A stretch of DNA of 64,000 nucleotides from Notolepis coatsorum (lineage: Eukaryota > Chordata > Actinopteri > Aulopiformes > Paralepididae), in contig OZ020589.1 of the NCBI GenBank assembly GCA_963971535.1, positions 79,654,911 to 79,718,910 on the forward strand, in the 5' to 3' direction. Within the stretch, counting starts at the first letter, position 1. Each line of letters opens with the position of its first letter. Shown here in pieces: positions 6,143-44,695 of this stretch. The position numbers were made by a program, and so were the translations under genes. Below the pieces are notes generated by a model. The model did not search any database, was not told where the DNA came from, and saw nothing but the letters and a program-made list of their open reading frames with translations.

Positions 6143-6174
6143 ATAAATTATTGTATTACATCACGCTCACCATC

Positions 6175-14000: not shown

Positions 14001-14039
14001 CCTGTCAATTAACAGTGATTCTCTGTTCTCGGGTTCTCA

Positions 14040-20154: not shown

Positions 20155-20359
20155 TGTTGAAGTGCCACGAAGTGACCCTTTTTGTATTTTTGACATCCTG
20201 TTCTCTCTCTCTGACTTGTGTCCCTTGTATGATGTAATATATTAAGCATTATAAAGGATTAAATATAAGTATGTATTATAAGCTTGATAACAGGACGAGT
20301 AGGCCTCTGATATGACGGATGTCTTTTTGTATTCTTATATAACCTGTATAACTATATAC

Positions 20360-21821
20360 TAGGGATGCCCCGATCACGTTTTTTGCCACCGATACCGATC
20401 ACCGATCGTCGTGAGCCATATCGGCCGATACCGATCCGATACCGATCGTTTTTGATTACAATATTTTTAATTGTATTTTATATAATTTTCTTTTTTTTAT
20501 AAAAAATATATATTATATGGGGCGGCTACGTGGCGTAGTGGGCAAGGCGCTCACCACGAATGACGGAGACGCTGGGCTTGCCTGTTCGAGCCCAGCGCTC
20601 CACATTGCTTTCAGTTTAGCTGGTCGTTCATACTAATACACATTGGCCGTATTAGGGGGTGGGAAACTGATGGGTGGGGATCGGGCGTTGTGGACAGCGA
20701 CTTCTACAGGTCGGTTGGTGCCCCTGCGCAGTAGAATCAGGAAGTGTCTGGGGCAGCGTGAGCCTCCCACGCGTTACTCCTCGCCACTGAGAGATCGAGC
20801 TGCGCAGGTGAAAAGATGCGACTGCTGTTACCTCAAGTACCGGAGGGGACTTAGTCCACATTGCAGCCGGCTTGTGGGAGGCAAGAAACAGCGTTCGTGA
20901 CAGGGGAGGGTTGAATTGGATGATACGAAATTGGGATGGGAGGAAATATAGAAAATGGGAGAAAAAGTGGATAAAAAAAAATATATATATATTATATAAT
21001 TAGACTTGTACTTGTATTATCTGCGAGACATTGCCACCACGCAACAAGCTCCACTGTATGTGTGTACTCTAGTAGCCTCCAGCTACAGCCAGGATTCTCC
21101 GGAGCTGCAGCTAGACCCTATACTCGAGTAGCCTGCAGCTACAGCCAGGATTCTCCGGAGATGCAGCTGGACCCTATTGGTATAACGTTACTGTGGTCAT
21201 ATCACATTCAACATGCCCTCAGCTCGAATACGCATCGAATCAGTGTTATAAGACATTGATATCAGGAGCTATCTGTAGCTACTGCTAGCCGGATATATAA
21301 CGTTAATACAACGCCTCAGTGAATTATTTAGTTCAATGGGACATTTCGTTTTGAACAGTGAACTAACTTGCGCTAACGTGAGCTAACAGCTAACAGCTAA
21401 CAGGTATCATACACGTCTCTACTAGACTTGATGGAGCGTTTGTTGATGTCAGGAGCTATCGGTAGCTGGCCGGCTAGATACCGTTCGGTTAGACAATGCC
21501 TCATCATGTATTAAACTAAAAGTGAATAGTTGACTGGGTCATTTTGTAACGGTAGCTAAGCTAATGTTAGCTCAGGGAGACGCCGTCCTCCCGTGTCCCG
21601 TCCCACTAGACTACTAGACCCGTGTTTACATGCGTGCGGGAGTGGCTGGAGGGATGAGCAGACGCCGCACCACCCGGTGTCTGAGACAGAACTCAGCGAC
21701 AGCGAGTGAGATCGGTTTTGACGATCGGCGAAAATAAAGCATTATCACAGATCACCGATCGCATATTTATACTGATTATCGGCCGATAACGATCGGTGGC
21801 CGATCGATCGGGGCATCCCTA
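20360..21821. mobile_element. hAT-type element with TAGGGATGCCCCGATC ends
   Basis: Left end TAGGGATGCCCCGATC, right end GATCGGGGCATCCCTA, and the 8-bp duplication CTATATAC at 20,352-20,359 and 21,822-21,829. The right LTR of the host element keeps the unoccupied site with one CTATATAC at about 42,948-42,955. GATACCGATC/GATCGG words near the ends can pair. There is no transposase frame. A SINE is nested at 20,519-20,970. Confidence 0.93.
20519..20970 (+). mobile_element. tRNA-derived SINE, full length
   Basis: The head carries a polymerase III A box, TGGCGTAGTGGG at 20,531-20,542, and a B box, TGTTCGAGCCC at 20,583-20,593. The body follows (GGGGCAGCGTGAGCCTCCCA, GCGCAGGTGAAAAGATGCGA, CGGAGGGGACTTAG), and the tail is A-rich. 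Flanks ATATATATTATAT-like on both sides may be target duplications but are low-complexity. The truncated relative at 19,644-19,860 shares the body. Confidence 0.8.
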
Positions 21822-21900
21822 CTATATACACTATAAACTATACTACAGTTAATGGAATATGCACAGTCAGAATGGAAAGAGAAGAGGCCTCTGTGCTGTG

Positions 21901-22711
21901 TGTGAGGATTGGCCCGTTGCCGAACACACGCTTCTAGGTCAAGTACCAATTGCCGTCACGCACCTGTTGTTTGTTTGTAATCAGCGCTCCAGAGCCCTTC
22001 ATATACTCGGGTCTTTCTGTCAGTCGTTGTCGGGTCGTTTTGGATTACCACTGCTACTGCCTGTTCCCCCCGTTGTTTTGCCTCGTCTGTTTTTTCTTCA
22101 GGACGTCTATGGAAGTCGCCGCTGTTGTGTTTCTCTATCATCCGTTGGAGCTGTGCCTCGTTGCCCGCTTTGCGCATTTGCGCTTTGGTGAGTTTTTGGA
22201 ACGAACCTTTTGGATTCTCTGTTTTTGTGTGTTTGGATAACACTGAAGATTTGCCGTTTTTGTTTTGTACTGGACTCAGCTAAACTTGTGTGTTGGTAAC
22301 ACTGAAAATTAAGTCACGTGTGATTGTACTGGGCTCAGCTAAACTTGCATGTTGGTAACACTGAAGATAAAGTCACGTGTGATTATACTGGACTCAGCTA
22401 AGGAGGACTGGACTGCCTCTGTATTCCGTTGGCTTGTTTATTGACCACTCTCTCTCTCTCTCCGTTCCTCCCCGAGTTGGATCCTGGAGTAGCTGCAGAG
22501 CCACAGAGGCAGTGGCGCTACGCCGCTTCACCATCTCAATACCGGGACGATCTGCAGAGCCGCAGACACTCTGCCAAGAACATTCTCCCCTTTGTTGTTC
22601 TTATTGTTATTTCGCTCATTCCTGTTTCAGAAATAAATACGCCCTAGTCTTTGGCTACCTCTGAACTACCTGTCTGTGCCGTGCTGTTGGGGTCGGTTTC
22701 AAACCATAACA
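21901..22711 (+). mobile_element. 811-bp solo LTR with CTGTG target duplication
   Basis: It begins TGTGAGGATTGG and ends AACCATAACA. CTGTG lies at 21,896-21,900 and 22,712-22,716. The corresponding place in the right LTR (about 43,021-43,030, TGTGCTGTGAAGCC) has a single copy. An AATAAA at about 22,630 fits a polyadenylation signal. No internal retroviral sequence remains, so it arose by recombination between two LTRs. The superfamily cannot be told from the LTR alone. Open frames inside it are not supported as genes. Confidence 0.88.
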
Positions 22712-24319
22712 CTGTGAAGCCAGGAATGTGGTCACAGAGCGCTGACCTTGACAGAAGCAGAGGGAGAATGATGATGATATGATGTGTAAAACATATCCAC
22801 CAATGTATATGAGTACTGTATATACGGTATATGTCTGTATTGTACATGTATATATATATATATATATCTGTATATATCTGTATATATATATATATATATG
22901 TGTATATATATATATATATAGGTGTACAGGCTATTCCAATTGAAAGCCGGGACCCATGTAGAGGCAGATGGAATTCTAGGGGCTTTCCCAGCACAAAGAA
23001 ATCTATTACTCTCTCAGTTACAGTAACGGCTAGAAAGGGGAGGAGTGGTCATCTTTATGTGTTATGTGTTGATTGGCTGGTAGAATGACATCACTATGAC
23101 ATCACTGTATTTAGACCAATAGTAAAGAGGTCTTGATATGATACAAGACCGGTATATAAGTGACTTCTCCAGTCTTGACGAGTCAGATTTTTCAGTTTTT
23201 TTAAGCCAGGAAATGTCGAGCGGTGTATTGGGGCATGGCCTGGCAATTTTTCAGAGTGGCGTCCCTATGACAAGACTGTTTTTTTAGATGCTCTAAATCT
23301 TTTAAATGACAAAGAGAATTTTTGCTATGCTAAGAGAGAGATGTTTTGTTTTATACTCATTTTAACTGGATTGGACATTTTCAAGACAGAATCTTTGTAA
23401 CTTGCTTTTTCTAATTAAAATAACTTTGTTTAAATTCTTATTGAATTCGTGGACTGCTTTCCTCCGTGCCGTTCTATCACAATGTGCCGCGACGCTGGCC
23501 TCGCCCTGCTTTCATCTGAGGTAAAACGGTATAGCTATATTCTGGAAGCCATGCAGATTTAATCAATTGCTGGTTACTGCTTTTCAGCTAAAGTTATATA
23601 AAGGATATTATATATATGTATACTATTGACAGTAGTAATGCTTAGTTTCACTGTTTGTTGTTTGCAAGCGCCGGTAGCCACTGTGTTCGACGGGCTCCAT
23701 TGGGTTTGTGGGAAGCTGAGAGTCTCGCCACTGCAGGGCCGGATGATCGGTGGCCACGGATTGATGGGCCTGTCAAACTGATAAGGGGTTATGGGGCTTG
23801 CAAATGATTGTTAGTATGCCAATATTACACTATTAGCAGTAATAATACTTATTAAAAGAGTAGTAATATCATCAGGCTTACAAATGATTAGCATTACAGG
23901 CCTTTCCTCACAAATGAGGATAGTGGCGGTGACGGTGATGGTGATAATATAATTACTAGTGTTGTAGGCAAAGTAATATCATCAGGCTTTCAAATGATTA
24001 GCATTACAGGCCTTTCCTCACAAATGAGGATAGTGGCGGTGACGGTGATGGTGATAATAATATTATTATTATTATAGGCAAAAGAGTTCTCCCAGACATA
24101 CATTCGGTTTATTACAAACAAAGAAGAGGTTAACAACTCTTCTATGCTTATATTTCATATCAACTGGATATAACTAACTAGTGACTATGAAGTAAGTGTG
24201 ATAGAAATAGTAATTGACCCGAGAACTTAGCACCTCACTGGGGGATATCGGGTGGCCACAGGGTTATATCTCGAGTAAGTGACCTGAGATAGATAGAGAC
24301 AACCCATCGGCATTCAACA

Positions 24320-24344
24320 TGGCGTCCCTGAGTTCGGGCTGAGA
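24320..24344 (+). promoter_or_regulatory. Primer-binding site resembling tRNA-Asn 3' end
   Basis: Directly after the LTR: TGGCGTCCCTGAGTTCGGGC. The first 11 bases are complementary to the 3' end of vertebrate tRNA-Asn including CCA, with partial agreement afterwards (GGGCT). The tRNA identity comes from memory of tRNA sequences; position and the TGG start are seen directly. Confidence 0.65.
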
Positions 24345-26280: not shown

Positions 26281-26284
26281 TAAC

Positions 26285-28244
26285 AGCAGACGCTAGCTCA
26301 GAAGAAGCTGGCGCAGAAGATGCTAGCTCATAAGAAGCTGGTGCAGCAGACGCTAGCTCAGAAGAAGCTGGCGCAGAAGATGCTAGCTCATAAGAAGCTG
26401 GCACAGCAGACGCTAGCTCATCAGAAGCTGGCACATGAGACGCTAGCTCAGGAGAAGCTAGCACAAGAGATGCTAGCTCAAGAGGAGCTGGCGCAGAAGA
26501 AGCTAGCTCAAGAGAAGCTAGCACAGAGGATGCTAGCACAGCAGATGCTAGTGCAACAGACGCTAGCTCAGGAGAAGCTGGCGCAGAAGAAGCTAGCTCA
26601 AGAGAAGATAGCACAACAGATGCTAGCGCATCAGACGCTAGCTCAAGAGAAGCTAGCACAAGAGATGCTAGCTCAGGAGAAGCTAGCACAACAGATGTTA
26701 GCGTAACAGACGCTAGCTCAAGAGAAGCTAGCACAAGAGAAGCTAGCACAAGAGATGCTAGCACGGAAGACGCTAGCACAGCAGATGCTAGTGCAACAGA
26801 CGCTAGCTCAGGAGAAGCTGGCGCAACCGACGCTAGCTCAGGAGAAGCTAGCACAAGAGACGCTAGCTCAGGAGAAGCTGGCGCAACCGACGCTAGCTCA
26901 AGAGAAGCTAGCACAAGAGAAGCTAGCACAAGAGATGCTAGCACAGGAGATGCTAGCACAGAAGATGCTAGCCCATGAGACGCTAGCTCAACAGAAGCTA
27001 GCTCAAAAAAAGTGGGCACAGAAGATGCTAGCACAGAAGAAGCTAGCACAAGAGACGCTAGCTCATGAGAAGCTGGCACAGCAGACGCTAGCTCATGAGA
27101 AGCTGGCACATGAGACGCTAGCTCAGGAGAAGCTAGCACAAGAGATGCTAGCTCAAGAGAAGCTGGCGCAGAAGAAGCTAGCTCAAGAGAACCTAGCACA
27201 GAGGATGCTAGCACAGCAGATGCTAGTCAAGTGCAACAGACGCTAGCTCAGGAGAAGCTGGCGCAGAAGAAGCTAGCTCAAGAGAAGCTAGCACAACAGA
27301 TGCTAGCGCATCAGACGCTAGCTCAAGAGAAGCTAGCACAAGAGATGCTAGCTCAGGAGAAGCTAGCACAACAGATGCTAGCGCAACAGACGCTAGCTCA
27401 AGAGAAGCTAGCACAAGAGAAGCTAGCACAAGAGATGCTAGCACGGAAGACGCTAGCACAGCAGATGCTAGTGCAACAGACGCTAGCTCAGGAGAAGCTA
27501 GCTCAGGAGAAGCTGGCACAGCGGACGCTAGCCCATGAGACGCTAGCTCAGCAGATGCTAGCTCATGAGAAGCAGGCACAGGTAGCTCAGAAGAAGCTGG
27601 TGCAGCAGATGCTAGCTCATGAGAAGCTGGCGCAGCAGATGCTAGCTCAGGAGATGCTAGCACAGGAGACTCTAGCTCGCATGTTGAGACATCTCAAAAG
27701 ACTGGAGATCCCCAAAAGGGCCTCAATGGCCCAAATGATGGAAATAGAAGTAAGGACCCCCGGTCAAGATCCAGGGGATAACATGGTGGAGAAACGAATC
27801 CCACAGGTGCGAGACGGGAGCATGTCTCTCACTGTTGCAGCAGGATCAGTCATGCATGGAGCACCTATGCAAGGATCATGCTTACTGCTTGAAAAGCTAT
27901 TCATAGGTGTCCCAGGGGGTAACCTACTGGCAGCCCGATGCGCAGCATGGTCACAAGACCAGTTACGTATCGAATGTATGCTGTATGACCAAGTCAAAAT
28001 GCTATCTAACAACAAACACAACAAAGGGGAAAGGAAAGGGGAGAACCCGCGAGATGAGAAGGCTCAACTCCGGCCTCCCAAAGCCTAGCAACAGCCACCA
28101 GCTAAGGCTAGAACAAGGAAAACGGAGTCTTCCGACATCAAATACCTCTCTGCAGACGATTGGGGGGCACTAACCCCAGAGCAGCAAGCAGAGATGAGGG
28201 CAAAAAGGGAGGAATTCAAAGCCCGGAAGGAAAAACATCAATAG
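26285..28244 (+). pseudogene. Gag-like frame with a huge pentapeptide repeat, broken in three places
   Basis: From about 26,285 to 27,690 a 15-bp unit (GCTAGCTCAAGAGAA type, about 93 copies) encodes LAQEK/LAQEM/LAQKK-like pentapeptides. It runs in frame into a unique region reading MLRHLKRLEIPKRASM, then LLLEKLFIGVPGGNLLAARC and finally KYLSADDWGALTPEQQAEM. That last motif recalls the linker near the end of Copia-type Gag proteins (weak, from memory). Breaks: a CAA to TAA change at 26,704, a 4-base insertion near 27,227 that shifts the frame, and a TAG at 28,086. It ends with TAG at 28,242. Position after the primer-binding site fits gag of the large element. Both strands of the repeat are open, so openness alone is not evidence of coding; the unique tail is the better evidence. 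Confidence 0.45.
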
Positions 28245-28730
28245 TATCCTTACCTTCTGGGGCCCTGACACATGACACTCGAGCAAGTGCAAACTGCACT
28301 TGACATTCAGCTCATCTGTCGAGAGGAATAATATATAGTGTTATTGTCATTTAGGAAGAAACATGACATAGAATACTACATTCATTTTGTATACATTTTA
28401 AGTATACTATGTAAAGATGTCTGTCTTTTCTCTAAACCAGAGTAAGGAGGACGAAAGAATTTGTAATCTATTTCATTCAAGGCAAAGGGGATTTCCTGAC
28501 AGTAACTATTTGGTAGGTTACACCCGTACCAACCATATCAGCTGCATGAGATGTACACTCACCAGCGCCTATGGATAAAAATTGAGACTCTGCAAACTCT
28601 CATCAAGCTTAGCACCTTGACGCGGGGGGACAGAGCGAGCATCAGGGTCTCTATATCCGACGGGCCTATCAGATTTGTGGGGACTTGGAAGCTTCAGCAT
28701 ACAGGACGCTGTGGTGCTTAGGCCGAAGAA
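28245..28730 (+). other. Non-coding interior of the large element
   Basis: No gene recognised. The sequence changes character near 28,715-28,730, where Gypsy coding text begins (AAGAATAAGAAAGACACACC). A protease or reverse transcriptase would be expected here in an intact element and is absent. Confidence 0.5.
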
Positions 28731-29159
28731 TAAGAAAGACACACCGATAGATATCAGACACTATCACTCCATGCAAGAGGAGCTGAGTGTTCAGGACGAA
28801 ATCGTCTTCAGAGGAGAGAGAGTTGTGATTCCAGAAACAATCCGAAGCGACATCACCCGCCGCATACACTCTACTCACCTGGGAGTAGAGGAGTGTCTCA
28901 GACGGGCGAGAGAATATGTCTACTGGCCAGGAATGACCGAGCAGATCAGGACAGCCATATCCAAGTGCGACATCTGCAGATCAATGGACACAAAGCAGCA
29001 GAAAGAGACACTGCACTCACACGAGGTGCCGAGCAGGCCATGGGCCAAGGTGGGGACAGACTTGTTTACCCATAACAACATTGATTACCTACTGACAGTT
29101 GACTACTATTCTAATTTTTGGGAGGTCGACCATTTACCAGACACAAAATCGAGTACGGT
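28731..29159 (+). mobile_element. Left copy of a duplicated 429-bp Gypsy integrase segment
   Basis: Encodes DTPIDIRHYHSMQEELSVQD, the zinc-binding part HSTHLGVEECLRRAREYVYW and CDICRSMDTK, and the first catalytic region VGTDLF. It is colinear with 38,721-39,149 at a constant offset of 9,990 bases, with no indel and two mismatches that I could see (28,892 and 29,143). The frame is broken at 29,160 where the BEL LTR starts. Confidence 0.9.
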
Positions 29160-30572
29160 TGTAACTGAGGGGTACAATTCCCTGACTGTATTGTTAGATA
29201 TGATACTTACTACCACTACCTCTTGTACTTTAGACTCTGGCCACCCAGTACTAGGTATAAATAATTATGATAAACACTCCCACCTGATGAAACGGATCCA
29301 ACACAAATGTACCAAGTCGAAAGTCTGCGTTTAATAATAATACATAGCAAAAGGTATGTACAACGATCACTTAATTACATTTATGATTTGAAATAGTATG
29401 CACTTTTATGGCAAATGAGTATTCGTAGGTAGATCAATATCGAATGTCCAATCTCTGATTGCGCAGGAAGCAAATATACAACCTGGAATATTTAGGGAAC
29501 AATAGCAATGATACTTGAATGATTATATAGCTGGATACACTAGGGGAAGGTTCCGACTGCTTGTAGGACAGCTGGAGGGGGGGGGTAGAGTCTGGCTGTA
29601 TCCCGTCTGGCCGAGGGTATCCTGGGAGAGCCCACAGTCGTGCGACCCGGTGCCCAGCGATCCTCGATCCACAGATGAAAGCAGTTGGACTCTCTGTGGC
29701 CGGCGTCCTCCGGTCCACGATGGAGAGACGTGAGGCGACCTCGTCGTGTAGAGCGTCTTCTCACCTGTCGTCCTCTCCGGGGGGGGTATTTCCAACACAC
29801 CGCAGTGTTGGCCTTTATCCATAGAATAATCAAAGTACTCAAAGCATAATCCAAGCCGGGGAAGGCTAGCCGTCGTCGGTAGAATAATCCAATATACAGG
29901 TCCACTCGCTCTTTGGCCTGGAGCTCCTCGGGTGCAGCTTCACGTGGGGTCAACCACCCTGGATAAGCGTCCAGCTGATGCCCGAAACGATGGGGGTGCT
30001 GATTACTATAGAACTCTTACCGCACGAGGCACTACATATGAATAGACTATTATTAGCTTAATAGAATACGTCCAACTCGACGATATAGTGCCAAATATGA
30101 CTATTCAAATATTAATATACACGATGTCTCAATGCCGATACTGGGCCGAATTGGCCTTACTGCCCACACGTGGTTCACGGGAGAGGCTTTTGCGTCTGTC
30201 ACTCTGTTGGAGGGTAAGGAACTGGACTAAAAAGAAAGCTCTACTTTAATAGCGCAGTATATATATATACGCACTATGAACAAATAGTACCATTAGTGGT
30301 GCGGTAGACATATTCCTACGCGGAACTAGGACTTGTCCATACATGTTGAGCGGTACGATTGAACCTGGTCTGAGGGGGTATGGCGACCTGGCACCAAGGT
30401 CTCGTCCAATGGTAGAATGGAGACTATTATGGGATGTTCAGTAGACTAGAAGGGATATTCAATGCATATTGTACAAGGAATATACAAGGGATATCAGGGG
30501 ATATACAAATACAATTAAATATATATATATAAATAAATATATATATTCGGTTTAATCTGATCCTTCAGAACA
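29160..30572 (-). repeat. 3' LTR of the BEL element
   Basis: Plus-strand ends TGTAACTGAGG and CCTTCAGAACA. It nearly equals 37,314-38,720; differences include the G-run length near 29,577, CACGATG versus CACAATG, and a TA-repeat length near 30,262. An ATAAA-rich region near 30,520 and TATATAT runs may carry its signals; none is decisive. Confidence 0.9.
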
Positions 30573-30583
30573 GCCGCCCCCTA
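30573..30583 (-). promoter_or_regulatory. Polypurine tract of the BEL element
   Basis: On the minus strand AGGGGGCGGC directly precedes the LTR start TGTTCTGAAGG. It would prime plus-strand DNA synthesis. Short, and interrupted by one C. Confidence 0.6.
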
Positions 30584-30667
30584 ATTGGTCCCAACCCAAT
30601 TAGTTAAGCAGAGACAGATTAACCGCACTGTCTACCACTCAAGGGTTCGCTGTAAGGGTCAGTCAAC

Positions 30668-33600: not shown

Positions 33601-33990
33601 TTTTGGGATCCGATCTGGTAGCTGCAGTTAAACACGATGCGGTCTTTGCCGTTGTGATGAACCTTGTGGTGGGGCACGTACCACGATTCAGTCGTCTGGT
33701 CGGCCTCTTTAATGTCAATCTTTGTGACGTGTCCCGCTGTGATGAGCTTCTCAATCTCAGCGCGGTATACACTTTCTTGGGCGGGGTCCTTGGCTAAGCG
33801 CCGCTCTGTGTTTAGTAGGTACCGCTCTGTGGCGTCTTTCTTTGCGTGAAAGGTAGGCATCCCTTCCCGCCGCAGGAGTGGCGTGGCGTATCTCAACACG
33901 CCGCTGACTGGGACTCTCTTTGTTCCCGTCTCGAGGAGGTTAATGGCGTAGATGTCGTCTTTAGAGCGAATGTCTTTCTTTTCGTTCTTA
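30668..33990 (-). pseudogene. BEL/Pao pol: reverse transcriptase, RNase H, integrase
   Basis: Minus-strand frame (main part 30,858-33,899, open upstream to about 33,990) encoding in order: the reverse transcriptase with GDIKGMFLQV, LPFGTTCSPCCA and the active-site box YVDN near residue 210; the BEL RNase H with FSDASEVAYGSVAY; a zinc-binding HHAGAERVF...CLDCRKC; the integrase core with MDCFGP, LLSDHRTNF and WEREVRS; and a C-terminal domain ending in the separate frame 30,668-30,889 (VARLIELPRLP). That last frame is offset, and the change falls in a short GA run near 30,889-30,895, fitting loss of two bases. Upstream the frame is also offset by one from the gag-protease frame near 33,988. YVDN is normal for fish BEL elements as I recall them. 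Confidence 0.85.
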
Positions 33991-35583: not shown

Positions 35584-35646
35584 ACCAATTCTGCTGCTTG
35601 TCTGCTGCTTGTTGCTGCTTGTGTGCCACTTAAGTCTACTCAGGTG

Positions 35647-37269
35647 TTAATTTTCCGGGGGTGTTGGCTGGGGGAACAAAGGGAGGGTAGTTAACTTAAG
35701 TGCTTCCCCAGGGAGGGGGTCGGGGGCTACTGCCCTCAGACCCCCAAAATAATTTTTATATGGGCAGTCTGACTTGGGGTACTGACCATATATTAGTGTT
35801 GCAATGCATGATAAGTAAACAGTGAAAAAAGCTAAGAAATCTGATGGGGCTGGGACATTTGGGACGAATAAAGATTTAAGATGAAAATCTGCCCAGCCTG
35901 TGGGAGGAAGTGGAGGTGTGAAATCTGGCCCGGTCAAGAACAATAGAGGAGTGGTAGAGAGTGGTAGAGAGGCATGAGAGGTTTGAGTTTTGAGTGCTGT
36001 ATCTGTAGGTGTGCCAATGTATGACGCGGATTGTTGATACATCGGCGAGCGTTGGGGGAGAGGCCTCCTAGGCGAGTCTCCTCCTGCTCCTTGGCGTGGG
36101 CTGGTACCGGCTGTGTACCATGGCCCGCTGGTCCAGGTGCTGTTCCTCGGTGCGGGTCGTGCGTCGTGCTCACCCGTGGATAGCGTCGGGGGTCTGTAGC
36201 GCAGCTCCGCGGGGGTATAGCCTGGGCTGTACTGGACCTCCTGGTCCGGTAGAGTACTGTGCTGTCGTCGGGCGTGGTTCTCCTCCTCTTCCTCTTCGTC
36301 TTCCGTTAGGTCATCCAGGGCTTGTAGTCTCTGATTTAGCCTCTCCGCAGTGTATGCTGCTCCTTCCCGGTGGCTGGGTCTCGCTTGGACCGGTTGGGGC
36401 AGGGGGTCTGCGGGGGGTATAAACCTCGTCTGTTGGTCAAGTTCAGGGTCGCTTACTCGGCTAGGGGATGCCGCCCTGGAGTGATGTCTAGACGAGTTCC
36501 TGGAGCCTCTGGTGGAGGGAGGGGGTGTTGTCCTTCTGATCAGCTGTTCTATTAGTTGCGCTTGTGCTCTGTCGCGCTCGGCTTCGCGCTTGGTGAGATC
36601 CGATTCTCTCTGGGCACCGGTGGCGGCGCGCTGGGCGTCGGCCCGGTCTCTTGCCATATTCTCTTCCATCTGAATGCGTCTTATTTCCAGGCGTATGTGC
36701 TCTTCTTCGCTCCGTTGCTGTATCTGCAATCGATCGCGTTCACCCTGGAGTCTATCGCGTTCAGTAGAGGCTTTCAGGCTGACGAGGAATGCCTGCTGTA
36801 GTGTCCTCTCTGCCTCGCTGGGAGAAGACGGTTGTATAGGGGAGCCGTCCCTTGGGGTACTCCGTGCGGGGTCTTGGAGCTCTATCTCCACGGTGCTCTC
36901 CTCATCTTCTTCCGTGCCGAGTTCTCTCTCGGTAGTGTTGTCTTCCTCCCGGGACTCGTCGGGGACTACTTCTTCGGTATTGGCGGGGTGTAAGGTCATG
37001 TCTGGTTCCCCCTGGTCCCCACCGTGAGCTGGGTCAGTTACGTTAGAACCCATAGGGGCCTCTATGGTCGGGGTAGCCTGGTCGTTAGGGTTAGACATAA
37101 TTTTACTTTCTAGTTTTACCGCGTTTACTGTTGGTAGAAGACTAGGTTGTTGACTGACAGCGTAAGCCTCTAGGTACTGAGGGAGCTGTCGTTTGCGCCG
37201 CGGGCGTTGTTGGTTAGGAGGATCGTTTCGTGGAGTGTTCATCATAGGCCATTTTAATATTAATAACAC
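35647..37269 (-). CDS. BEL/Pao gag N-terminal frame with coiled coil
   Basis: 540 codons on the minus strand, directly downstream of the 5' LTR and primer-binding site. Residues about 150-245 form a long charged coiled coil (RDRLQGERDRLQIQQRSEEE and on). An arginine/serine-rich segment (SRNSSRHHSRAASPSR) and a proline-rich tail follow. The start may be the ATG within WPMMNTPRNDP. The last roughly 70 codons look unlike Gag (hydrophobic, FLAFFTVYLS), so the true protein may leave this frame by splicing or a shift before 35,850 to join the 35,583 frame. Confidence 0.6.
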   Translation of the reverse strand: MLLILKWPMMNTPRNDPPNQQRPRRKRQLPQYLEAYAVSQQPSLLPTVNAVKLESKIMSNPNDQATPTIEAPMGSNVTDPAHGGDQGEPDMTLHPANTEEVVPDESREEDNTTERELGTEEDEESTVEIELQDPARSTPRDGSPIQPSSPSEAERTLQQAFLVSLKASTERDRLQGERDRLQIQQRSEEEHIRLEIRRIQMEENMARDRADAQRAATGAQRESDLTKREAERDRAQAQLIEQLIRRTTPPPSTRGSRNSSRHHSRAASPSRVSDPELDQQTRFIPPADPLPQPVQARPSHREGAAYTAERLNQRLQALDDLTEDEEEEEENHARRQHSTLPDQEVQYSPGYTPAELRYRPPTLSTGEHDARPAPRNSTWTSGPWYTAGTSPRQGAGGDSPRRPLPQRSPMYQQSASYIGTPTDTALKTQTSHASLPLSTTPLLFLTGPDFTPPLPPTGWADFHLKSLFVPNVPAPSDFLAFFTVYLSCIATLIYGQYPKSDCPYKNYFGGLRAVAPDPLPGEALKLTTLPLFPQPTPPEN

Positions 37270-37294
37270 TATATTAATATTACACTGATTACCA

Positions 37295-37311
37295 TCCGGC
37301 TCGAAGGACCA
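37295..37311 (-). promoter_or_regulatory. BEL primer-binding site for tRNA-Tyr
   Basis: The plus strand reads TCCGGCTCGAAGGACCA, identical over 17 bases to the 3' end of vertebrate tRNA-Tyr with CCA (recalled). It lies two bases from the 5' LTR, the normal place. Confidence 0.8.
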
Positions 37312-37313
37312 AT

Positions 37314-38720
37314 TGTAACTGAGGGGTACAATTCCCTGACTGTATTGTTAGATATGATACTTACTACCACTACCTCTTGTACTTTAGACTCTGGCCACCC
37401 AGTACTAGGTATAAATAATTATGATAAACACTCCCACCTGATGAAACGGATCCAACACAAATGTACCAAGTCGAAAGTCTGCGTTTAATAATAATATATA
37501 GCAAAAGGTATGTACAACGATCACTTAATTACATTTATGATTTGAAATAGTATGCACTTTTATGGCAAATGAGTATTCGTAGGTAGATCAATATCGAATG
37601 TCCAATCTCTGATTGCGCAGGAAGCAAATATACAACCTGGAATATTTAGGGAACAATAGCAATGATACTTGAATGATTATATAGCTGGATACACTAGGGG
37701 AAGGTTCCGACTGCTTGTAGGACAGCTGGAGGGGGGGGGGTAGAGTCTGGCTGTATCCCGTCTGGCCGAGGGTATCCTGGGAGAGCCCACAGTCGTGCAA
37801 CCCGGTGCCCAGCGATCCTCGATCCACAGATGAAAGCAGTTGGACTCTCTGTGGCCGGCGTCCTCCGGTCCACGATGGAGAGACGTGAGGCGACCTCGTC
37901 GTGTAGAGCGTCTTCTCACCTGTCGTCCTCTCCGGGGGGGGTATTTCCAACACACCGCAGTGTTGGCCTTTATCCATAGAATAATCAAAGTACTCAAAGC
38001 ATAATCCAAGCCGGGGAAGGCTAGCCGTCGTCGGTAGAATAATCCAATATACAGGTCCACTCGCTCTTTGGCCTGGAGCTCCTCGGGTGCAGCTTCACGT
38101 GGGGTCAACCACCCTGGATAAGCGTCCAGCTGATGCCCGAAACGATGGGGGTGCTGATTACTATAGAACTCTTACCGCACGAGGCACTACATATGAATAG
38201 ACTATTATTAGCTTAATAGAATACGTCCAACTCGACGATATAGTGCCAAATATGACTATTCAAATATTAATATACACAATGTCTCAATGCCGATACTGGG
38301 CCGAATTGGCCTTACTGCCCACACGTGGTTCGCGGGGAGGCTTTTGCGTCTGTCACTCTGTTGGAGGGTAAGGAACTGGACTAAAAAGAAAGCTCTACTT
38401 TAATAGCGCAGTATATATACGCACTATGAACAAATAGTACCATTAGTGGTGCGGTAGACATATTCCTACGCGGAACTAGGACTTGTCCATACATGTTGAG
38501 CGGTACGATTGAACCTGGTCTGAGGGGGTATGGCGACCTGGCACCAAGGTCTCGTCCAATGGTAGAATGGAGACTATTATGGGATGTTCAGTAGACTAGA
38601 AGGGATATTCAATGCATATTGTACAAGGAATATACAAGGGATATCAGGGGATATACAAATACAATTAAATATATATATATAAATAAATATATATATTCGG
38701 TTTAATCTGATCCTTCAGAA
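37314..38720 (-). repeat. 5' LTR of the BEL element, lacking the final CA
   Basis: It starts TGTAACTGAGG and runs to CCTTCAGAA, where the other LTR continues with CA. The next base already belongs to Gypsy sequence (TAAGAAAGAC). The junction shares AGAA with the Gypsy site (GAAGAATAAG at 28,725-28,734), a microhomology typical of recombination rather than clean integration. Confidence 0.9.
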
Positions 38721-39915
38721 TAAGAAAGACACACCGATAGATATCAGACACTATCACTCCATGCAAGAGGAGCTGAGTGTTCAGGACGAAATCGTCTTCA
38801 GAGGAGAGAGAGTTGTGATTCCAGAAACAATCCGAAGCGACATCACCCGCCGCATACACTCTACTCACCTGGGAGTAGAGGGGTGTCTCAGACGGGCGAG
38901 AGAATATGTCTACTGGCCAGGAATGACCGAGCAGATCAGGACAGCCATATCCAAGTGCGACATCTGCAGATCAATGGACACAAAGCAGCAGAAAGAGACA
39001 CTGCACTCACACGAGGTGCCGAGCAGGCCATGGGCCAAGGTGGGGACAGACTTGTTTACCCATAACAACATTGATTACCTACTGACAGTTGACTACTATT
39101 CTAATTTTTGGGAGGTCGACCATTTACCAGACTCAAAATCGAGTACGGTGATAAGAAAGCTGAAGGCTCACTTTGCTCGTCAGGGGATCGCAGATGTTGT
39201 GGTTTCGGACAATGGGCCACAATACTCTTCACACGAGTTCGAGAGGTTCAGTCAGCTGTGGGGATTTAAACACCAGACGTCATCCCCTGGCTACCCTCAA
39301 AGCAACGGGAAAGCAGAGTCGGCAGTCAAAACGGCGAAGAGACTCATGATGAAAGCCAAGGCGGCAGGGGAAGACCCATACCTGGCGATGTTGGATCACC
39401 GCAACACTCCATCTCAAGGGCTAGACACAAGCCCAGCTCAGAGACTGATGTGTAGGAGGACCAGAACCCTGCTACCAACGAGGGATAGTCTTCTGCAGCA
39501 AGAAGTGAAACGCACAACGGCAGAGCAGATGAGACGAGGACAAATGAGACAAGCAAAATACTACGACAGAACAGCGAGAGATTTGGACACGCTAAAAGTA
39601 GGAGAGCATGTCAGAATTCAACCCTTCGAACCGCACACAAGCTGGAGAAAGGCGACAGTGGTGCAGCCTGTTGACCACAGATCCTACAGAGTAGAGCTGG
39701 ACACCGGAACTGTTCTTCGACGAAATCGACGATACCTGAGACGGGACAGGGGCACAGAGCCAGGTGGGCCGGACCTGACTGTATCTGTTGAGACCCACAG
39801 CACACCAGAGTCTACCGCTACTCTGGGCAGGGACATAGGGGACACACAGACTTTAACCACAAGATCGGGTCGAGCAGTTGCTAGACCAGGATATCTCATT
39901 GACTATGCAAGCTGA
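38721..39915 (+). pseudogene. Gypsy integrase, 5' truncated
   Basis: Open from the BEL junction; the first ATG is at 38,761 (384 codons). Counting from it: zinc-binding histidines 33 and 36 with cysteines 66 and 69; catalytic core aspartates at GTDLF (97) and VSDNG (150) and glutamate 186 in KAESAVK, giving the D,D(35)E pattern of retroviral-type integrases. After that come LDHRNTPSQGLDTSPAQRLM and a chromodomain-free C-terminal part (KVGEHVRIQPF, WRKATVVQP). This order and text are Gypsy-type. Gag, protease and reverse transcriptase are missing, so it is a remnant although the integrase frame is intact. Same strand as the large host element. Confidence 0.85.
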
Positions 39916-40004
39916 GTGTGTGGGGCACAGTGTGTTCAAGAAGAAGAAAAGAGAGAAAAAATAATGGTTTTGAAAGTAGATTTTTATGTCATTACCGTTT
40001 AGCT

Positions 40005-40062
40005 CAAGTTCAAGTTCTTTAATAGTTGTCATACAGAAGTACTCCATGTTAGTTCGATATTA
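40005..40062 (-). mobile_element. Tiny LINE-tail insertion with long target duplication
   Basis: CAAGTTCAAGTTCTTTAATA and GTTGTCATACAGAAGTACT, related to the arms of the foldback at 57,496-57,754, lie between ATGTCATTACCGTTTAGCT (39,986-40,004) and ATGTCATTCACCGTTTAGCT (40,063-40,082). A duplication of about 19 bp and a LINE-like tail point to target-primed reverse transcription of a very short end fragment. Confidence 0.6.
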
Positions 40063-40095
40063 ATGTCATTCACCGTTTAGCTCCCTTTAGTTCAG

Positions 40096-40273
40096 TAAAA
40101 GAAAAGGGATGTTACAATAGGTTTGTATTAAACTAAGGTTTTGTTTTCCGCACGGACGGAGTTGAGTGTGACACAGCTAGGTGGAGGGCTGGAGTATGTC
40201 AACGTGAGATTGTAATAAAAGTGTAAGCAACTTGGAGAATGCTTCAATCGTCAATTCTGTAGTTCAGGGTACA
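40096..40273 (+). repeat. Polypurine tract and 3' LTR of the Gypsy element
   Basis: AAAAGAAAAGGGA at about 40,097-40,109 is followed by TGTTACAATAGG, and the segment ends AGTTCAGGGTACA at 40,273. Length about 164 bp, with AATAAA near 40,213. TG...CA ends and the tract support a short LTR. The matching 5' LTR is missing, so the call rests on structure only. Confidence 0.55.
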
Positions 40274-40359
40274 GTATAAACCAAGGCAGAATTTAACAAC
40301 AGCCAAGAGAATATGAACTTAAATGACTGCTGTCAGGTGTCTCTGGAGTAAAATTTATT

Positions 40360-41240
40360 ACAGATTTGAGTCAAAACCTAAGTAGAAAGCTCTACTAGCG
40401 ACTAGCAACCTAAAAAAAGGCTTAAAGTCACACTCGAGTAGAAAGCTCTACTCGGGAATATCACACTTCAGTAGAAAGCTCTATTTTTGTGATTAAAGTA
40501 ACGTTTACTTGCGACTAAAAGGTAACGTAATGTTTACCTAAAGTCAAAACCTAAGTAGAAAGCTCTACTAGCAACTAGCAACCTAAAAAAAGGCTTAAAG
40601 TCACACTCAAGTAGAAAGCTCTACTCGGGAATATCACACTTCAGTAGAAAGCTCTATTTTTTTTATTGAAGTAACGTTTACTCGCGACTAAAAGGTAACG
40701 TAATGTTTACCTAAAGTCAAAACCTAAGTAGAAAGCTCTACTAGCGACTAGCAACCTAAAAAAAAGGCTTAAAGTCACACTCGAGTAGAAAGCTCTACTC
40801 TGGAATATCACACTTCAGTAGAAAGCTCTACCTTGTGATTATCACCCTATAGAAGGATCCGTCTCTCACACTTCAGTAGAAAGCTCTACTCGGGAATATC
40901 ACCCTACGGAAGGATCAGTCTCTCACACTCCAGTAGAAAGCTCTACTTGTGAATATCACCCTACGGAAGGATCAGTCGCTCACACTCTAGTAGAAAGCTC
41001 TACTCGGGAATATCACCCTACGGAAGGATCAGTCTCTCACACTCCAGTAGAAAGCTCTACTTTGTGATTAGCACCCTACGGAAGGATCAGTCTTTCACAC
41101 TCCAGTAGAAAGCTCTACTTGTGAATATCACCCAACGGAAGGATCAGTCGCTCACGCTCTAATAGAAAGCTCTACTCGGGAATATCACCCTACGGAAGGA
41201 TCAGTCTCTCACACTCCAGTAGAAAGCTCTACTTTGTGAT
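40360..41240. repeat. Tandem repeats around AGTAGAAAGCTCTACT
   Basis: First a long unit of about 180 bp (TCAAAACCTAAGTAGAAAGC, TCTACTAGCGACTAGCAACC, AAAGGCTTAAAGTCACACTC) three times, then a unit near 57-60 bp (AGTAGAAAGCTCTACTCGGG, AATATCACCCTACGGAAGGA, TCAGTCTCTCACACTCC) about seven times. AGTAGA and TCTACT can pair across AAGC, so each unit can form a small hairpin. Confidence 0.9.
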
Positions 41241-41790
41241 CTGCATTGCTAACAGATGATAACAGCAGGCTAACTAGCCATTGCTAACATATGATAACAG
41301 CAGGCTAACTAGCCATTGCTAACAGATGATAACAGCAGGCTAACTAGCCATTGCTAACAGATGATAACAGCAGGCTAACTAGCCATTGCTAACAGATGAT
41401 AACAGCAGGCTAATGAGCCAGTGCTAACAGATGATGACAGCAGGCTAATGAGCCAGTGCTAACAGATGATAACAGCAGGCTAATGAGCCAGTGCTAACAG
41501 ATGATAACAGCAGGCTAATGAGCCAGTGCTAACAGATGATGACAGCAGGCTAATGAGCCAGTGCTAACAGATGATGACAGCAGGCTAATGAGCCAGTGCT
41601 AACAGATGATGACAGCAGGCTAATGAGCCAGTGCTAACAGATGATGACAGCAGGCTAACTAGCCATTGCTAACAGGAGCTAATAGCAGGCTAACGAGCCA
41701 TTGCTAACAGGAGCTAATAGCAGGCTAACTAGCCATTGCTAACAGGAGCTAATAGCAGGCTAACTAGCCAGTGCTAACAGGAGCATTCTT
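41241..41790. repeat. 35-bp minisatellite, about 15 copies
   Basis: Unit AACAGATGATAACAGCAGGC, TAACTAGCCATTGCT, stepping exactly 35 bp (41,251, 41,286, 41,321). Later copies change to AATGAGCCAGTGCT and then to GGAGCTAATAGCAGG. Contains the GCTAAC word. Confidence 0.93.
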
Positions 41791-41872
41791 AGACAAGGGG
41801 GCTGTCCCCCGGAGTCGGTGGACGACGTAGCAAGTAGCAAAGGAGTATACTGATCCAGATCAGAACTCAGAA

Positions 41873-42353
41873 ATGGAGGAAGACCGGGATAGGTCAAGCT
41901 CCAGAGCATCCGCAAGGTCCTCATCTAGGTCAAGATCTAGGGAGAGAGTTCGGTACCCAAGGGACGAACCTCCTAGACCTCGGAACAAGAGAGCTAAACC
42001 GGCCAAACTGAGACCTATCAGCAAGGGGCCTTCTCTGAAAGCTCTCCTGGAGCTCAGGATTGGAGGACGTATCCGACGAAGGTGAAGGAGAATGGGCAGG
42101 CGATGAAACAGGGGATATTATGCCCGCATATCCTGTGACATGGAGACAGAGAGACATCGGCCTGGACCCAAGTTACAGGGTGACGAGAGCCCTGAATGGA
42201 CCTGAAAGAGAGAAAAGAAATGAGTCCTCTGTGGACTGTATCTGTGATGTCCTGCGTGGCCTACGGACAGGGTCACACGACCAGGCCAACCACACTTCAA
42301 TAGAGGACTGCTGCTACAATTCTCGGGGACCCGTGGGGTCGCCCGAGAAGTGA
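41873..42353 (+). pseudogene. Serine/arginine-rich small frame overlapping an acidic frame
   Basis: From ATG 41,873: MEEDRDRSSSRASARSSSRS followed by RERVRYPRDEPPRPRNKRAK, ending at 42,085. A second frame, one base on and open from 42,039 to 42,353, has LEDVSDEGEGEWAGDETGD and a plausible globular stretch (PAYPVTWRQRDIGLDPSYRV). Together they look like one protein broken by a frame change between 42,039 and 42,085, or a pair linked by frameshifting. No family recognised. It lies 0.4 kb before the right LTR of the large element. Confidence 0.4.
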
Positions 42354-42461
42354 CAATTCGACCTACCTCAAACTACGGGAGAGATCCAAGAGGTCAGAGG
42401 GGGTGACCATAAGAACTATGACATTGTGTTCTTCAGACGACAACAACTGGGTGCATTGGCC

Positions 42462-42625
42462 GGGAACAACAGATGCAAGTCTTCCCACCGGCTACCAAGC
42501 AACGACGTGGCCCCTATCCTGTCAGGCCGTCCAGCCAGGGAACAACAGATGCAAGTCTTCCCGCTGGCTACCAGGGTGCCAGGGAACAACAGATGCAAGT
42601 CTTCCCACCGGCTACCAGGGTACCA
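42462..42625. repeat. Three-copy short repeat before the right LTR
   Basis: GGGAACAACAGATGCAAGTC, TTCCCACCGGCTACCA begins at 42,462, 42,538 and 42,582. No gene. The stretch to 42,750 ends GATGACAGAGGCGG, a weak purine-rich tract directly before the LTR. Confidence 0.8.
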
Positions 42626-42750
42626 GGGAACCAAGATGACAGAGGGGGTGTGGAGAGTCACAGCCACGTGACCCCGCAATTGCCATCTTGTCCCCCCGTA
42701 CAGACGCTATTAGGACAGTGGAAAGTGACCGACCAGGATGACAGAGGCGG

Positions 42751-44615
42751 TGTTGAAGTGCCACGAAGTGACCCTTTTTGTATTTTTGACATCCTGTTCT
42801 CTCTCTCTGACTTGTGTCCCTTGTATGATGTAATATATTAAGCATTATAAAGGATTAAATATAAGTATGTATTATAAGCTTGATAACAGGACGAGTAGGC
42901 CTCTGATATGACGGATGTCTTTTTGTATTCTTATATAACCTGTATAACTATATACACTATAAACTATACTACAGTTAATGGAATATGCACAGTCAGAATT
43001 GAAAGAGAAGAGGCCTCTGTGCTGTGAAGCCAGGAATGTGGTCACAGAGCGCTGACCTTGACAGAAGCAGAGGGAGAATGATGATGATATGATGTGTAAA
43101 ACATATCCACCAATGTATATGAGTACTATACGGTATATGTCTGTATTGTACATGTATATATATCTGTATATATCTGTATATATATATATATATATAGGCG
43201 TACAGGCTATTCTAATTGAAAGCCGGGACCCGTGTAGAGGCAGATGGAATTCTAGGGGCTTTCCCAGCACAAAGAAATCTATTACTCTCTCAGTTACAGT
43301 AACGGCTAGAAAGGGGAGGAGTGGTCATCTTTATGTGTTATGTGTTGATTGGCTGGTAGAATGACATCACTATGACATCACTGTATTTAGACCAATAGTA
43401 AAGAGGTCTTGATATGATACAGGACCGGTATATAAGTGACTTCTCCAGTCTTGACGAGTCAGATTTTTCAGTTTTTTTAAGCCAGGAAATGTCGAGCGGT
43501 GTATTGGGGCATGGCCTGGCAATTTTTCAGAGTTGCGTCCCTATGACAAGACTCAAGACTTTTTTTAGATGCTCTAAATCTTTTAAATGACAAAGAGAGT
43601 TTTTGCTATGCTAAGAGAGATGTTTTGTTTTATACTCATTTTAACTGGATTGGACATTTTCAAGACAGAATCTTTGTAACTTGCTTTTTCTAATTAAAAT
43701 AACTTTGTTTAAATACTTATTGAATTCGTGGACTGCTTTCCTCCGTGCCGTTACTGCTTTTCAGCTAAAGTTATATAAAGGATATTATATATATGTATAC
43801 TATTGACAGTAGTAATGCTTAGTTTCACTGTTTGTTGTTTGCAAGCGCCGGTAGCCACTGTGTTCGACGGGCTCCATTGGGTTTGTGGGAAGCTGAGAGT
43901 CTCGCCACTGCAGGGCCGGACGATCGGTGGCCACGGATTGATGGACCTGTCAAACTGATAAGGGGTTATGGGGCTTGCAAATGATTGTTAGTACGCTAAT
44001 ATTACATTAGCAGTAATAATACTTATTAAAAGAGTAGTAATATCATCAGGCATACAAATGATTAGCAGTACAGGCCTTTCCTCACAAATGAGGATAGTGG
44101 CGGTGACAGTGATGGTGATAATATAATTACTATTGTTGTAGGCAAAGTAATATCATAAGGCTTTCAAATGATTAGCATTACAGGCCTTTCCTCACAAATG
44201 AGGATAGTGGCGGTGACGGTGATGGTGATAATATAATTACTAGTGTTGTAGGCAAAGTAATATCATCAGGCTTTCAAATGATTAGCATTACAGGCCTTTC
44301 CTCACAAATGAGGATAGTGGCGGTGACGGTGATGGTGATAATAATATTATTATTATTATTATAGGCAAAAGAGTTCTCCCAGACATACATTCGGTTTATT
44401 ACAAACAAAGAAGAGGTTAACAACTCTTCTATGCTTATATTCCATATCAACTGGATATAAATAACTAGTGACTATGAAGTAAGCGTGATAGAAATAGTAA
44501 TTGACCCGAGAACTTAGCGATTTTAGCACCTCGCTGGGGGATATCGGGCGGCCACAGGGTTATATCTCGAGTAAGTGACCTGAGATAGATAGAGACAACC
44601 CATCGGCATTCAACA
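42751..44615 (+). repeat. Right LTR of the large element, uninterrupted
   Basis: 1,865 bp, TGTTGAAG to ATTCAACA, followed by CCCACC, the right target copy at 44,616-44,620. CCAAT at 43,392-43,396, TATATAA at 43,429-43,435, ATTAAA at 43,693-43,698. Three copies of the roughly 100-bp repeat (near 44,041, 44,151 and 44,261) against two in the left LTR. It keeps the empty sites of the hAT and the solo LTR that hit the left LTR. Confidence 0.9.
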
Positions 44616-44695
44616 CCCACCTATTGTGAGATGGAGGTTGAGTATGTTTCCATTTAAAGATAATGAGTCACCTGGCCAGTAAGGTGGAGAAGGCA

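What the first reader, a model, noticed from the sequence alone, without database searches (positions are those of the whole stretch)
20155..44615. A single 24.5-kb LTR retroelement spans over a third of the window
The 1.87-kb repeats at 20,155-24,319 and 42,751-44,615 are not a random segmental duplication. They start and end with matched TGTTGAA/TTCAACA termini, are flanked by the same 5 bp (CCCAC), carry CCAAT and TATATAA boxes, and the left one is followed at once by a TGG-starting site complementary over 11 bases to tRNA-Asn. The interior is mostly minisatellites and later insertions with no own polymerase, so it looks like a very large non-autonomous element. I know no named element with this build.
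Basis: partly seen in the sequence, partly recalled or inferred. Interest (0 to 1): 0.9.

Follow-up and report, generated by a model that had tools for sequence, protein, structure and literature searches.

The report
Hitchhiking retrovirus remnant swollen by insertions
A defective retrovirus-like element with about 10.6 kb of its own DNA, stretched to 24.5 kb by later insertions, likely spread by borrowing the enzymes of a foamy-virus-like relative in the same genome, and some sister copies carry a retroviral Gag gene joined to zinc fingers predicted to bind DNA.

Summary
In detail: 20155-24319 and 42751-44615 are paired LTRs of one insertion (CCCAC target duplication, TGTTGAAG...TTCAACA ends, an 11-base tRNA-Asn-type primer site, no own polymerase). 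But 24.5 kb is the span: a hAT-like transposon, a solo LTR, and a truncated Gypsy carrying a BEL element make up about 13.9 kb, leaving about 10.6 kb. The LTR family is dispersed, and the LTR-end/primer-site junction occurs 625 times in the genome. A polymerase-bearing relative exists: at C30 an element with the same LTR 3' end and primer site encodes a 1,305-aa Gag-like protein with a macro domain and, in the -1 frame, a reverse transcriptase closest among solved structures to chains I take to be foamy-virus Pol. The window element keeps scrambled pieces of that Gag and only the start of Pol. It is thus a non-autonomous endogenous-retrovirus derivative, likely mobilised in trans. Unexpectedly, 8 of 10 related loci (picked by a finger-bearing query) join the macro/Gag frame to 3-8 C2H2 zinc fingers whose variability concentrates at the four DNA-contact positions. 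The window copy lacks this module. The kind is known (compare zebrafish Bhikhari); the macro-Gag-finger fusion was not found in ten searches of open papers.

The parts
20150..20154 (.). left copy of the 5-bp target-site duplication CCCAC
   Evidence: sequence; matched at 44616-44620
20155..24319 (+). 5' LTR, interrupted by two insertions
   Evidence: blastn to the 3' LTR
20360..21821 (.). hAT-like DNA transposon inside the 5' LTR, ends TAGGGATGCCCCGATC / GATCGGGGCATCCCTA, 8-bp duplication CTATATAC
   Evidence: absent from the 3' LTR; ends read by eye; hAT label recalled, no protein
21901..22711 (.). solo-LTR-like insert of another element inside the 5' LTR, 5-bp duplication CTGTG
   Evidence: absent from the 3' LTR; ends read by eye
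24320..24330 (+). primer-binding site TGGCGTCCCTG (11 bases complementary to the 3' end of tRNA-Asn; tRNA sequence recalled)
   Evidence: same site after the LTR in five other window-type copies and in the relative L044
24637..27678 (+). minisatellite blocks (25-, 61-, 35-, 30/15-bp units); the 15-bp unit encodes a pentapeptide repeat (AQEKL-like) in frame with the Gag C-terminus
   Evidence: Tandem Repeats Finder, translation
27114..28088 (+). open frame: pentapeptide repeats plus Gag C-terminal part
   Evidence: L043 ORF1 residues 1081-1304 match 27624-28235, 60% (tblastn)
28139..28285 (+). remnant of the first residues of the pol frame (L043 ORF2 residues 30-77)
   Evidence: tblastn 59%, E 4.7e-10; nothing further of the 695 residues tested
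28286..28723 (+). stretch weakly similar to the 3' part of the window's own LTR, possibly an internal LTR relic
   Evidence: local alignment score 5.2 SD above 60 shuffles; only 2.5 SD against the relative's LTR; suggestive only
28724..40299 (.). later insertion block: 5'-truncated Gypsy (plus strand, 28724-29159 and 38717-40299, own 3' LTR about 40110-40299 by eye) holding a BEL/Pao element; about 98 bp of host element lost at its left edge
   Evidence: absent from four other copies printed across this point; Gypsy piece dispersed alone; integrase domains
29160..38717 (-). BEL/Pao element, LTRs about 29160-30570 and 37314-38717 (K2P 0.0029), pol at 30861-33992
   Evidence: Pfam Peptidase_A17 7.9e-47, RVT_1 2.8e-9; LTR distance over 1,406 sites
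40325..40742 (+). second leader-like stretch: matches the relative's sequence just after its primer site and its leader repeats
   Evidence: blastn to L044 3109-3182 and L043 8-435, 74-80%
40369..41785 (+). second minisatellite block (173/57- and 35-bp units)
41758..42149 (+). Gag arginine/serine-rich piece (L043 ORF1 residues 794-933), frame broken, out of order relative to the C-terminal piece
   Evidence: tblastn E 1.1e-26; blastn 81%
42743..42750 (+). polypurine-like tract AGAGGCGG directly before the 3' LTR
   Evidence: sequence; same context before 5 of 6 LTR starts found in other copies
42751..44615 (+). 3' LTR
   Evidence: copies at many places
44616..44620 (.). right copy of the target-site duplication CCCAC
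   Evidence: sequence

Best explanation
It is a single insertion of a non-autonomous endogenous-retrovirus derivative of about 10.6 kb, later stretched to 24.5 kb by other transposons, and it likely moved by using the Gag, reverse transcriptase and integrase of a foamy-virus-like relative that is present in the same genome. Shown: paired LTRs with a 5-bp target duplication, a primer site, a purine-rich tract, the same LTR 3' end and primer site as the relative, scrambled Gag pieces, only the start of Pol among the residues tested, and many dispersed copies. Inferred: that transcripts from the LTR promoter are packaged by the relative's proteins, primed by tRNA-Asn, copied and integrated in trans; the relative's integrase itself was not read. 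Also inferred: that the family began as a fusion of two proviral fragments, because a second leader-like stretch and a Gag piece follow the Gag C-terminus out of order. In related copies the macro-domain/Gag frame runs into C2H2 zinc fingers. Those copies would make a Gag-finger fusion protein, whose role (guiding the particle or integration to DNA, or countering host zinc-finger repressors) is untested.
For: LTR pair, target duplication and ends. Of 20 LTR 3' ends found in 20 fetched loci, 5 run into the primer site, 14 into unrelated sequence, and 1 is truncated; the match missed at least one further end (L022 near 5604, seen). L025 is a solo LTR with target duplication GGAAC. Relative L043/L044: 1,305-aa ORF1 and an overlapping -1-frame ORF2 with RVT_1 (1e-29). 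ORF2 matches chains 7kse and 7o0h ('Peptidase A9', 'Pr125Pol'; foamy by recall) at 225-226 bits, Ty3 at 95-98 (7q5b so named, 4ol8 by recall) and the next Gag-Pol chain 8wus_E at 74. Its LTR ends CTCAACA and is followed at once by TGGCGTCCCTGG; a candidate start TGTTGAAG lies 2.1 kb upstream (by eye). Window Gag pieces match its ORF1 at 80-86% DNA. Pol similarity stops by residue 77 in the window and in the 6 of 20 other loci that show any. CAACATGGCGTCCCTG occurs 314+311 times, 0 in the reversed control; 6 of the 15 macro places on C1 and the listed part of C4 have it within 5 kb upstream on the same strand (by eye). dN/dS over macro-Gag is 0.18-0.65 in 42 of 45 pairs. The nested BEL's LTR distance (0.0029) is below the element's (0.0102), as order of insertion requires.
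Against: Outside the end and primer site the two LTRs share no convincing sequence, so the pairing with this particular relative is indirect. A family search for foamy Env (PF03408) found nothing; its controls also found nothing, so it is uninformative. The RNase H match is to a sub-threshold RT_RNaseH profile (20.7 bits, cut-off 24.8), which does not favour a foamy assignment. PR and IN of the relative were not seen, because only 10.2 kb was read. No reference tree could be made, so a lokiretrovirus-like or other class III origin is not excluded. The window's own Gag is broken up, so this copy can only be a passenger. No transcription or mobilisation data exist here.
Confidence: 0.8

Rival explanations
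1. The element is mobilised by an unrelated BEL/Pao or Gypsy family, and the Gag pieces are only captured cargo.
For: 5-bp target duplications and a G-rich tract before the LTR (GAGGCGG; compare GGGGGCGGC of the nested BEL) would also fit BEL.
Against: The nested BEL has another primer site (TGGTCCTTCGAGCCGG) and its proteins show no significant similarity to the element's interior (best E 0.2). The relative shares primer site, LTR 3' end, leader repeats, Gag and pol start.
Confidence: 0.1
2. The relative is not foamy-like but belongs to another deep retroviral branch (for example lokiretroviruses or ERV-L-like elements) that the solved-structure database does not represent.
For: The foamy call rests on solved structures; no Env match (uninformative); the paper passages I read name lokiretroviruses as a separate branch found in vertebrates including fishes.
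Against: The score gap is large (225 against 98 bits). Foamy-like ERVs of 17.4 kb are described in ray-finned fish (PMC5512871, passages).
Confidence: 0.25
3. The zinc-finger and macro frames are passive remains without function in the element.
For: Several frames carry stops; the window copy has no trace of them; the ten loci were the best matches to a query that itself holds fingers, so their share is biased.
Against: Open macro-finger frames in 8 of 10 loci, dN/dS below 1 over macro-Gag in 42 of 45 pairs, and contact-position entropy of 2.2-2.7 bits against at most 1.3 elsewhere; such a pattern could, however, be inherited from the captured host array.
Confidence: 0.35
4. Segmental duplication or assembly join of two loci.
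For: Large span; long tandem arrays.
Against: Target duplication, LTR ends and dispersed copies with different flanks. No reads were available to check the assembly.
Confidence: 0.01

Closest known systems
Bhikhari (Bik-1, Bik-2) of zebrafish, PMC10996621 (passages read)
   Same: Non-autonomous ERV families that encode Gag but neither pol nor env; many solo LTRs; Gag structurally compared with foamy viruses.
   Different: Bik-1 Gag is 617 aa with a coiled coil and capsid domain; the text has no 'zinc' and 'macro' only in 'macroevolutionary'. Sequence relation of the two was not tested.
Foamy-like endogenous retroviruses of ray-finned fish (AciFLERV, AliFLERV), PMC5512871 (passages read)
   Same: Large (17.4 kb) foamy-type ERVs, multicopy and young; helper mobilisation in trans proposed there as one option.
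   Different: They use a tRNA-Lys primer site (tRNA-Asn is reported there for newt NviFLERV-1); the text has no occurrence of 'ADP' or 'zinc'. The window element has no pol beyond its start.
Large retrotransposon derivatives (LARDs), named in PMC6431247 (passages read)
   Same: DNA between two LTRs replacing the coding sequence, moved in trans.
   Different: Here Gag pieces survive and related copies code for a fusion protein.
Fish ERVs with macro-domain ORFs (Basta 2009 as cited in PMC4977317, passages read) and zebrafish gag loci with Znf domains (45 of 1,119 gag genes, PMC8672886, passages read)
   Same: A macro domain, and separately a zinc-finger domain, associated with fish ERVs or their gag loci.
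   Different: There the macro domain is an additional ORF in Epsilon-like elements and the Znf domains are described at gag loci without a macro domain in the passages seen; here both are in one frame with Gag, in copies whose relative has a foamy-like RT.

Membership tests
LTR retroelement | paired LTRs with short inverted ends and a target-site duplication | tested here: met
   CCCAC, TGTTGAAG...TTCAACA
LTR retroelement | primer site after the 5' LTR and purine tract before the 3' LTR | tested here: met
   TGGCGTCCCTG at 24320; AGAGGCGG before 42751; the same in other copies
LTR retroelement, tRNA-Asn primer | complementarity to the host's own tRNA-Asn | not tested
Autonomous retrovirus / ERV | gag, pro, pol (env) between the LTRs | tested here: not met
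   only Gag pieces and pol residues 30-77 of the 695 tested; the window element is not filed as autonomous
Foamy-like ERV (the relative L043/L044) | foamy-type reverse transcriptase | tested here: met
   225 bits to chains recalled as foamy PR-RT, next Ty3 98; no tree
Foamy-like ERV (the relative L043/L044) | foamy-type Env | tested here: inconclusive
   PF03408: no match, no control rang
Foamy-like ERV (the relative L043/L044) | separate pol not made by Gag-Pol frameshift (recalled foamy trait) | tested here: inconclusive
   ORF2 overlaps ORF1 by about 190 nt in the -1 frame, which would also fit a frameshift
Non-autonomous gag-bearing ERV (Bhikhari-like) | multicopy, LTRs, gag without pol | tested here: met
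   20 fetched loci; pol start only, in 6 of them and the window, none of the later residues of 695 tested
Non-autonomous gag-bearing ERV (Bhikhari-like) | no env | tested here: inconclusive
   only PF03408 was tried, without a ringing control
Bhikhari family itself | sequence relationship to Bik Gag/LTR | not tested
   no reference sequence at hand
BEL/Pao | BEL pol between the LTRs on the element's own strand | tested here: not met
   the BEL pol is a nested minus-strand element
Ty3/Gypsy | Gypsy pol belonging to the element | tested here: not met
   the integrase piece is a separate dispersed Gypsy, absent from the other copies seen across that point
Macro domain (in L043 ORF1) | macro profile and fold | tested here: met
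   Pfam 5.8e-10 above cut-off; model pLDDT 81.6; Foldseek best 3ewp_B E 1.9e-10; the 50 rows shown are macro domains, designed hydrolases (recalled as built on macro scaffolds) and three 5iit rows (Vtc4)

The most novel reading that the evidence does not exclude
A retrovirus-derived family has turned its Gag into a DNA-addressed protein: a macro domain that would erase or read host ADP-ribose marks, fused in frame to a captured C2H2 zinc-finger array whose contact residues diversify from copy to copy. The arrays would steer integration, or mask element DNA from host zinc-finger repressors, so that a transposon family is running its own zinc-finger arms race and seeding new finger arrays into the genome.
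Probability: 0.25. Interest if true: 0.88.

Novelty: new variant of a known kind. Interest (0 to 1): 0.62.

Why it matters
Retroelements and host zinc-finger repressors are usually seen as opponents. Here retroelement copies themselves carry finger arrays with diversified DNA-contact residues, joined to a macro-domain Gag. That makes testable whether transposons recruit the host's own weapon and whether they are a source of new zinc-finger genes. It also shows how a passenger ERV family is built, by keeping LTRs, primer site, Gag ends and pol start, and how a 10.6-kb element can look like a 24.5-kb one.

Tried and rejected
Segmental duplication: rejected by target duplication and ends. Gypsy integrase as the element's own: rejected, absent from other copies. 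BEL as parent: rejected for protein and primer site. The 433-bp duplication beside the BEL as a giant target-site duplication: rejected, since the BEL right end lacks its last bases and joins Gypsy at a short shared stretch (read by eye). RTs in L018 and L029 as the element's pol: rejected; L018's is 48% identical to the window's RT at 48442-49350, and neither matches L043 pol. Host gene behind the finger tail: 3 matches among 40 candidates, none better than E 1.5e-4. Foamy Env: nothing, uninformative. Repbase/Dfam comparison: no such library here. Similarity of the LTRs of window element and relative beyond the ends: only short matches, best E 4e-4.


Full report
The observation. Two repeats, 20155-24319 and 42751-44615, are direct and collinear. 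They begin TGTTGAAG and end TTCAACA, and CCCAC lies outside both. Aligned as they stand, they differ at 14 of 1,389 collinear sites, K2P 0.0102 (two alignable pieces, 21821-21900 and 23573-23861, were dropped by the chaining rule). With the fish rate quoted in PMC5512871 (1.46e-8) this would be about 0.35 My. That rate was not calibrated for this host, and the number of nested insertions suggests a slower one. The left LTR holds a hAT-like element (20360-21821, duplication CTATATAC) and a solo LTR of another family (21901-22711, duplication CTGTG), both read by eye.

What is element and what is insertion. The plus-strand integrase at 28724-29159 and 38717-39912 is part of a dispersed Gypsy: its 3' region occurs alone at many places (1,562 first-look candidates, 40 scored) and its similarity ends at about 40298. 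Inside it sits a minus-strand BEL/Pao element (Peptidase_A17 7.9e-47) with LTR distance 0.0029 (4 changes in 1,406 sites). In four other copies of the LTR family that were printed across this point (L014, L017, L028, L032) the sequence at 28723 continues without this block through about 98 bp into 40299. The Gypsy is therefore a later insertion that lost its 5' part together with those 98 bp. Taking away 11,576 bp here and 2,286 bp in the left LTR (two inserts with one copy each of their target duplications) leaves about 10.6 kb. The stack is ordered as expected: the BEL is younger than the element that holds it.

The family. With the 3' LTR as query, the genome (3.42 Gb, 4,787 contigs, unnamed) gave 3,447 first-look candidates, of which 40 were scored. 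Twenty stretches were fetched. An approximate-match survey found 20 LTR 3' ends: 5 run straight into TGGCGTCCCTGAGTTCGGG, 14 into unrelated sequence, 1 is truncated; it missed at least one end seen (L022). Of 6 LTR starts, 5 follow GACAGAGGCGG and one (L025) follows unrelated DNA. L025 is a solo LTR flanked by GGAAC on both sides. The junction CAACATGGCGTCCCTG occurs 314 times forward and 311 reverse, and 0 times in the reversed control; this count mixes window-type and relative-type copies.

The relative. Some copies carried long frames, one with a macro domain and zinc fingers. Searching with that frame gave 9,134 candidates, 85 scored, 24 rows of them with a 1,305-aa open frame. One such place was read: L043 and, upstream, L044, 10.2 kb in all. 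ORF1 (1186-5103) has a macro domain (Pfam 5.8e-10). ORF2, overlapping by about 190 nt in the -1 frame and cut by the end of the stretch, has an RVT_1 domain (1e-29) and a sub-threshold RT_RNaseH match. Against solved structures ORF2 scores 224-226 bits with five chains named Peptidase A9/RT, Protease/RT or Pr125Pol, which I recall as foamy-virus Pol, 95-98 with Ty3 RT and 74 with the next Gag-Pol chain. L044 ends an LTR with CTCAACA followed at once by TGGCGTCCCTGG, and a candidate start TGTTGAAG lies about 2.1 kb upstream (by eye; the 3' LTR was not read). A database search with ORF1 found four proteins of 1,382-1,401 aa, 36-38% identical over 94-96% of it, all with a macro domain (7,992 candidates were scored).

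How the window element derives from it. Window 27624-28235 matches ORF1 residues 1081-1304, and 41758-42149 matches residues 794-933. The order is reversed relative to the relative, in the window and in L013, L022 and L028 among others. Window 28139-28285 matches ORF2 residues 30-77 and nothing further of the 695 residues tested; of the 20 loci L013-L032, six show a trace and all six stop by residue 77. Window 40325-40397 and its following repeats match the relative's leader, and 28286-28723 is weakly like the window's LTR (5.2 SD above shuffles; 2.5 SD for the relative's LTR). The simplest history (inferred) is that two proviral pieces were joined, pol being lost, and that the joined element, still holding LTRs, primer site and purine tract, then spread with borrowed enzymes.

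Zinc fingers. Ten loci came (L033-L042; L033 overlaps L027). All ten share interior pieces with the window element; two (L033, L042) show a window-type LTR within the short stretch held. Eight hold a macro domain and 3-8 C2H2 fingers in one open frame, one (L041) has macro without fingers, and one (L039) has no such frame of 250 aa or more. They were the best matches to a query with fingers, so the share is biased; L043 has none. Four further copies (L014, L017, L028, L029) have pentapeptide repeats running into fingers. Among 66 fingers (58 distinct) the entropy at positions -1, 2, 3 and 6 is 2.24, 2.17, 2.65 and 2.26 bits, and at most 1.28 anywhere else; part of this could be inherited from the captured array. 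Over the macro-Gag part, 42 of 45 pairs give dN/dS 0.18-0.65; the other three (0.89, 3.29 and undefined) are a near-identical trio with dS at most 0.004. The macro model (L043 residues 140-340) has pLDDT 81.6 and matches macro domains best. The window copy has no trace of macro or fingers at E <= 1e-3. A donor gene for the fingers was not found.

Known or new. PMC10996621 (passages) describes zebrafish Bhikhari: ERV families with gag, without pol and env. PMC5512871 (passages) describes 17.4-kb foamy-like ERVs in ray-finned fish with tRNA-Lys sites and a newt one with tRNA-Asn. PMC4977317 (passages) cites macro-domain ORFs in Epsilon-like fish ERVs. PMC8672886 (passages) reports Znf domains at 45 of 1,119 zebrafish gag genes, so fingers beside gag have a precedent. 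PMC6431247 (passages) reviews giant elements and large retrotransposon derivatives. PMC12440569, PMC9040795 and PMC3386198 were seen by passages only.

Limits. One relative was read over 10.2 kb only; its protease, integrase, env and 3' LTR were not seen. No reference tree, no Repbase and no expression data were available. The Env search had no ringing control. Host identity and host tRNA-Asn were not tested.

Noticed in passing
window 28727-29159 and 38717-39149: A 433-bp direct duplication of Gypsy integrase flanks the nested BEL (99.5%). The BEL's right LTR lacks its last bases and joins Gypsy at a short shared stretch, and the left Gypsy edge starts within about 10 bp of the same Gypsy coordinate: a rearrangement, not a target-site duplication.
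   Followed up: partly
G000 C1:166140310-166163307 (L036-L038): Three macro-finger copies on the same strand at 10.6-10.9 kb spacing, suggesting a tandem array of the element; L013 also starts with element sequence before its left LTR.
   Followed up: partly
window 12114-14012: Tandem repeat with a period of about 84 bp, about 22 copies by length, mostly 87-95% alike; further tandem blocks at 399-1635, 5111-6145 and 59970-60633.
   Followed up: no
window 46174-46291, minus: 5S rRNA-like match (Rfam RF00001, 55 bits), possibly the head of a SINE.
   Followed up: no
window 48442-49350, minus: Reverse transcriptase frame (RVT_1 3.2e-36), probably LINE-like; 48% identical to an insert in L018.
   Followed up: partly
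window 16645-18150: Open frame of 502 aa with a sub-threshold match to Transposase_21 (E 3.4e-4).
   Followed up: no
window 47084-47408 and 58793-59115: Inverted pair of 325 bp at 94.8% identity.
   Followed up: no
window 20520-20620: A stretch inside the hAT-like insert looks like a tRNA-derived SINE head (by eye); ARAGORN found no tRNA in the window.
   Followed up: no
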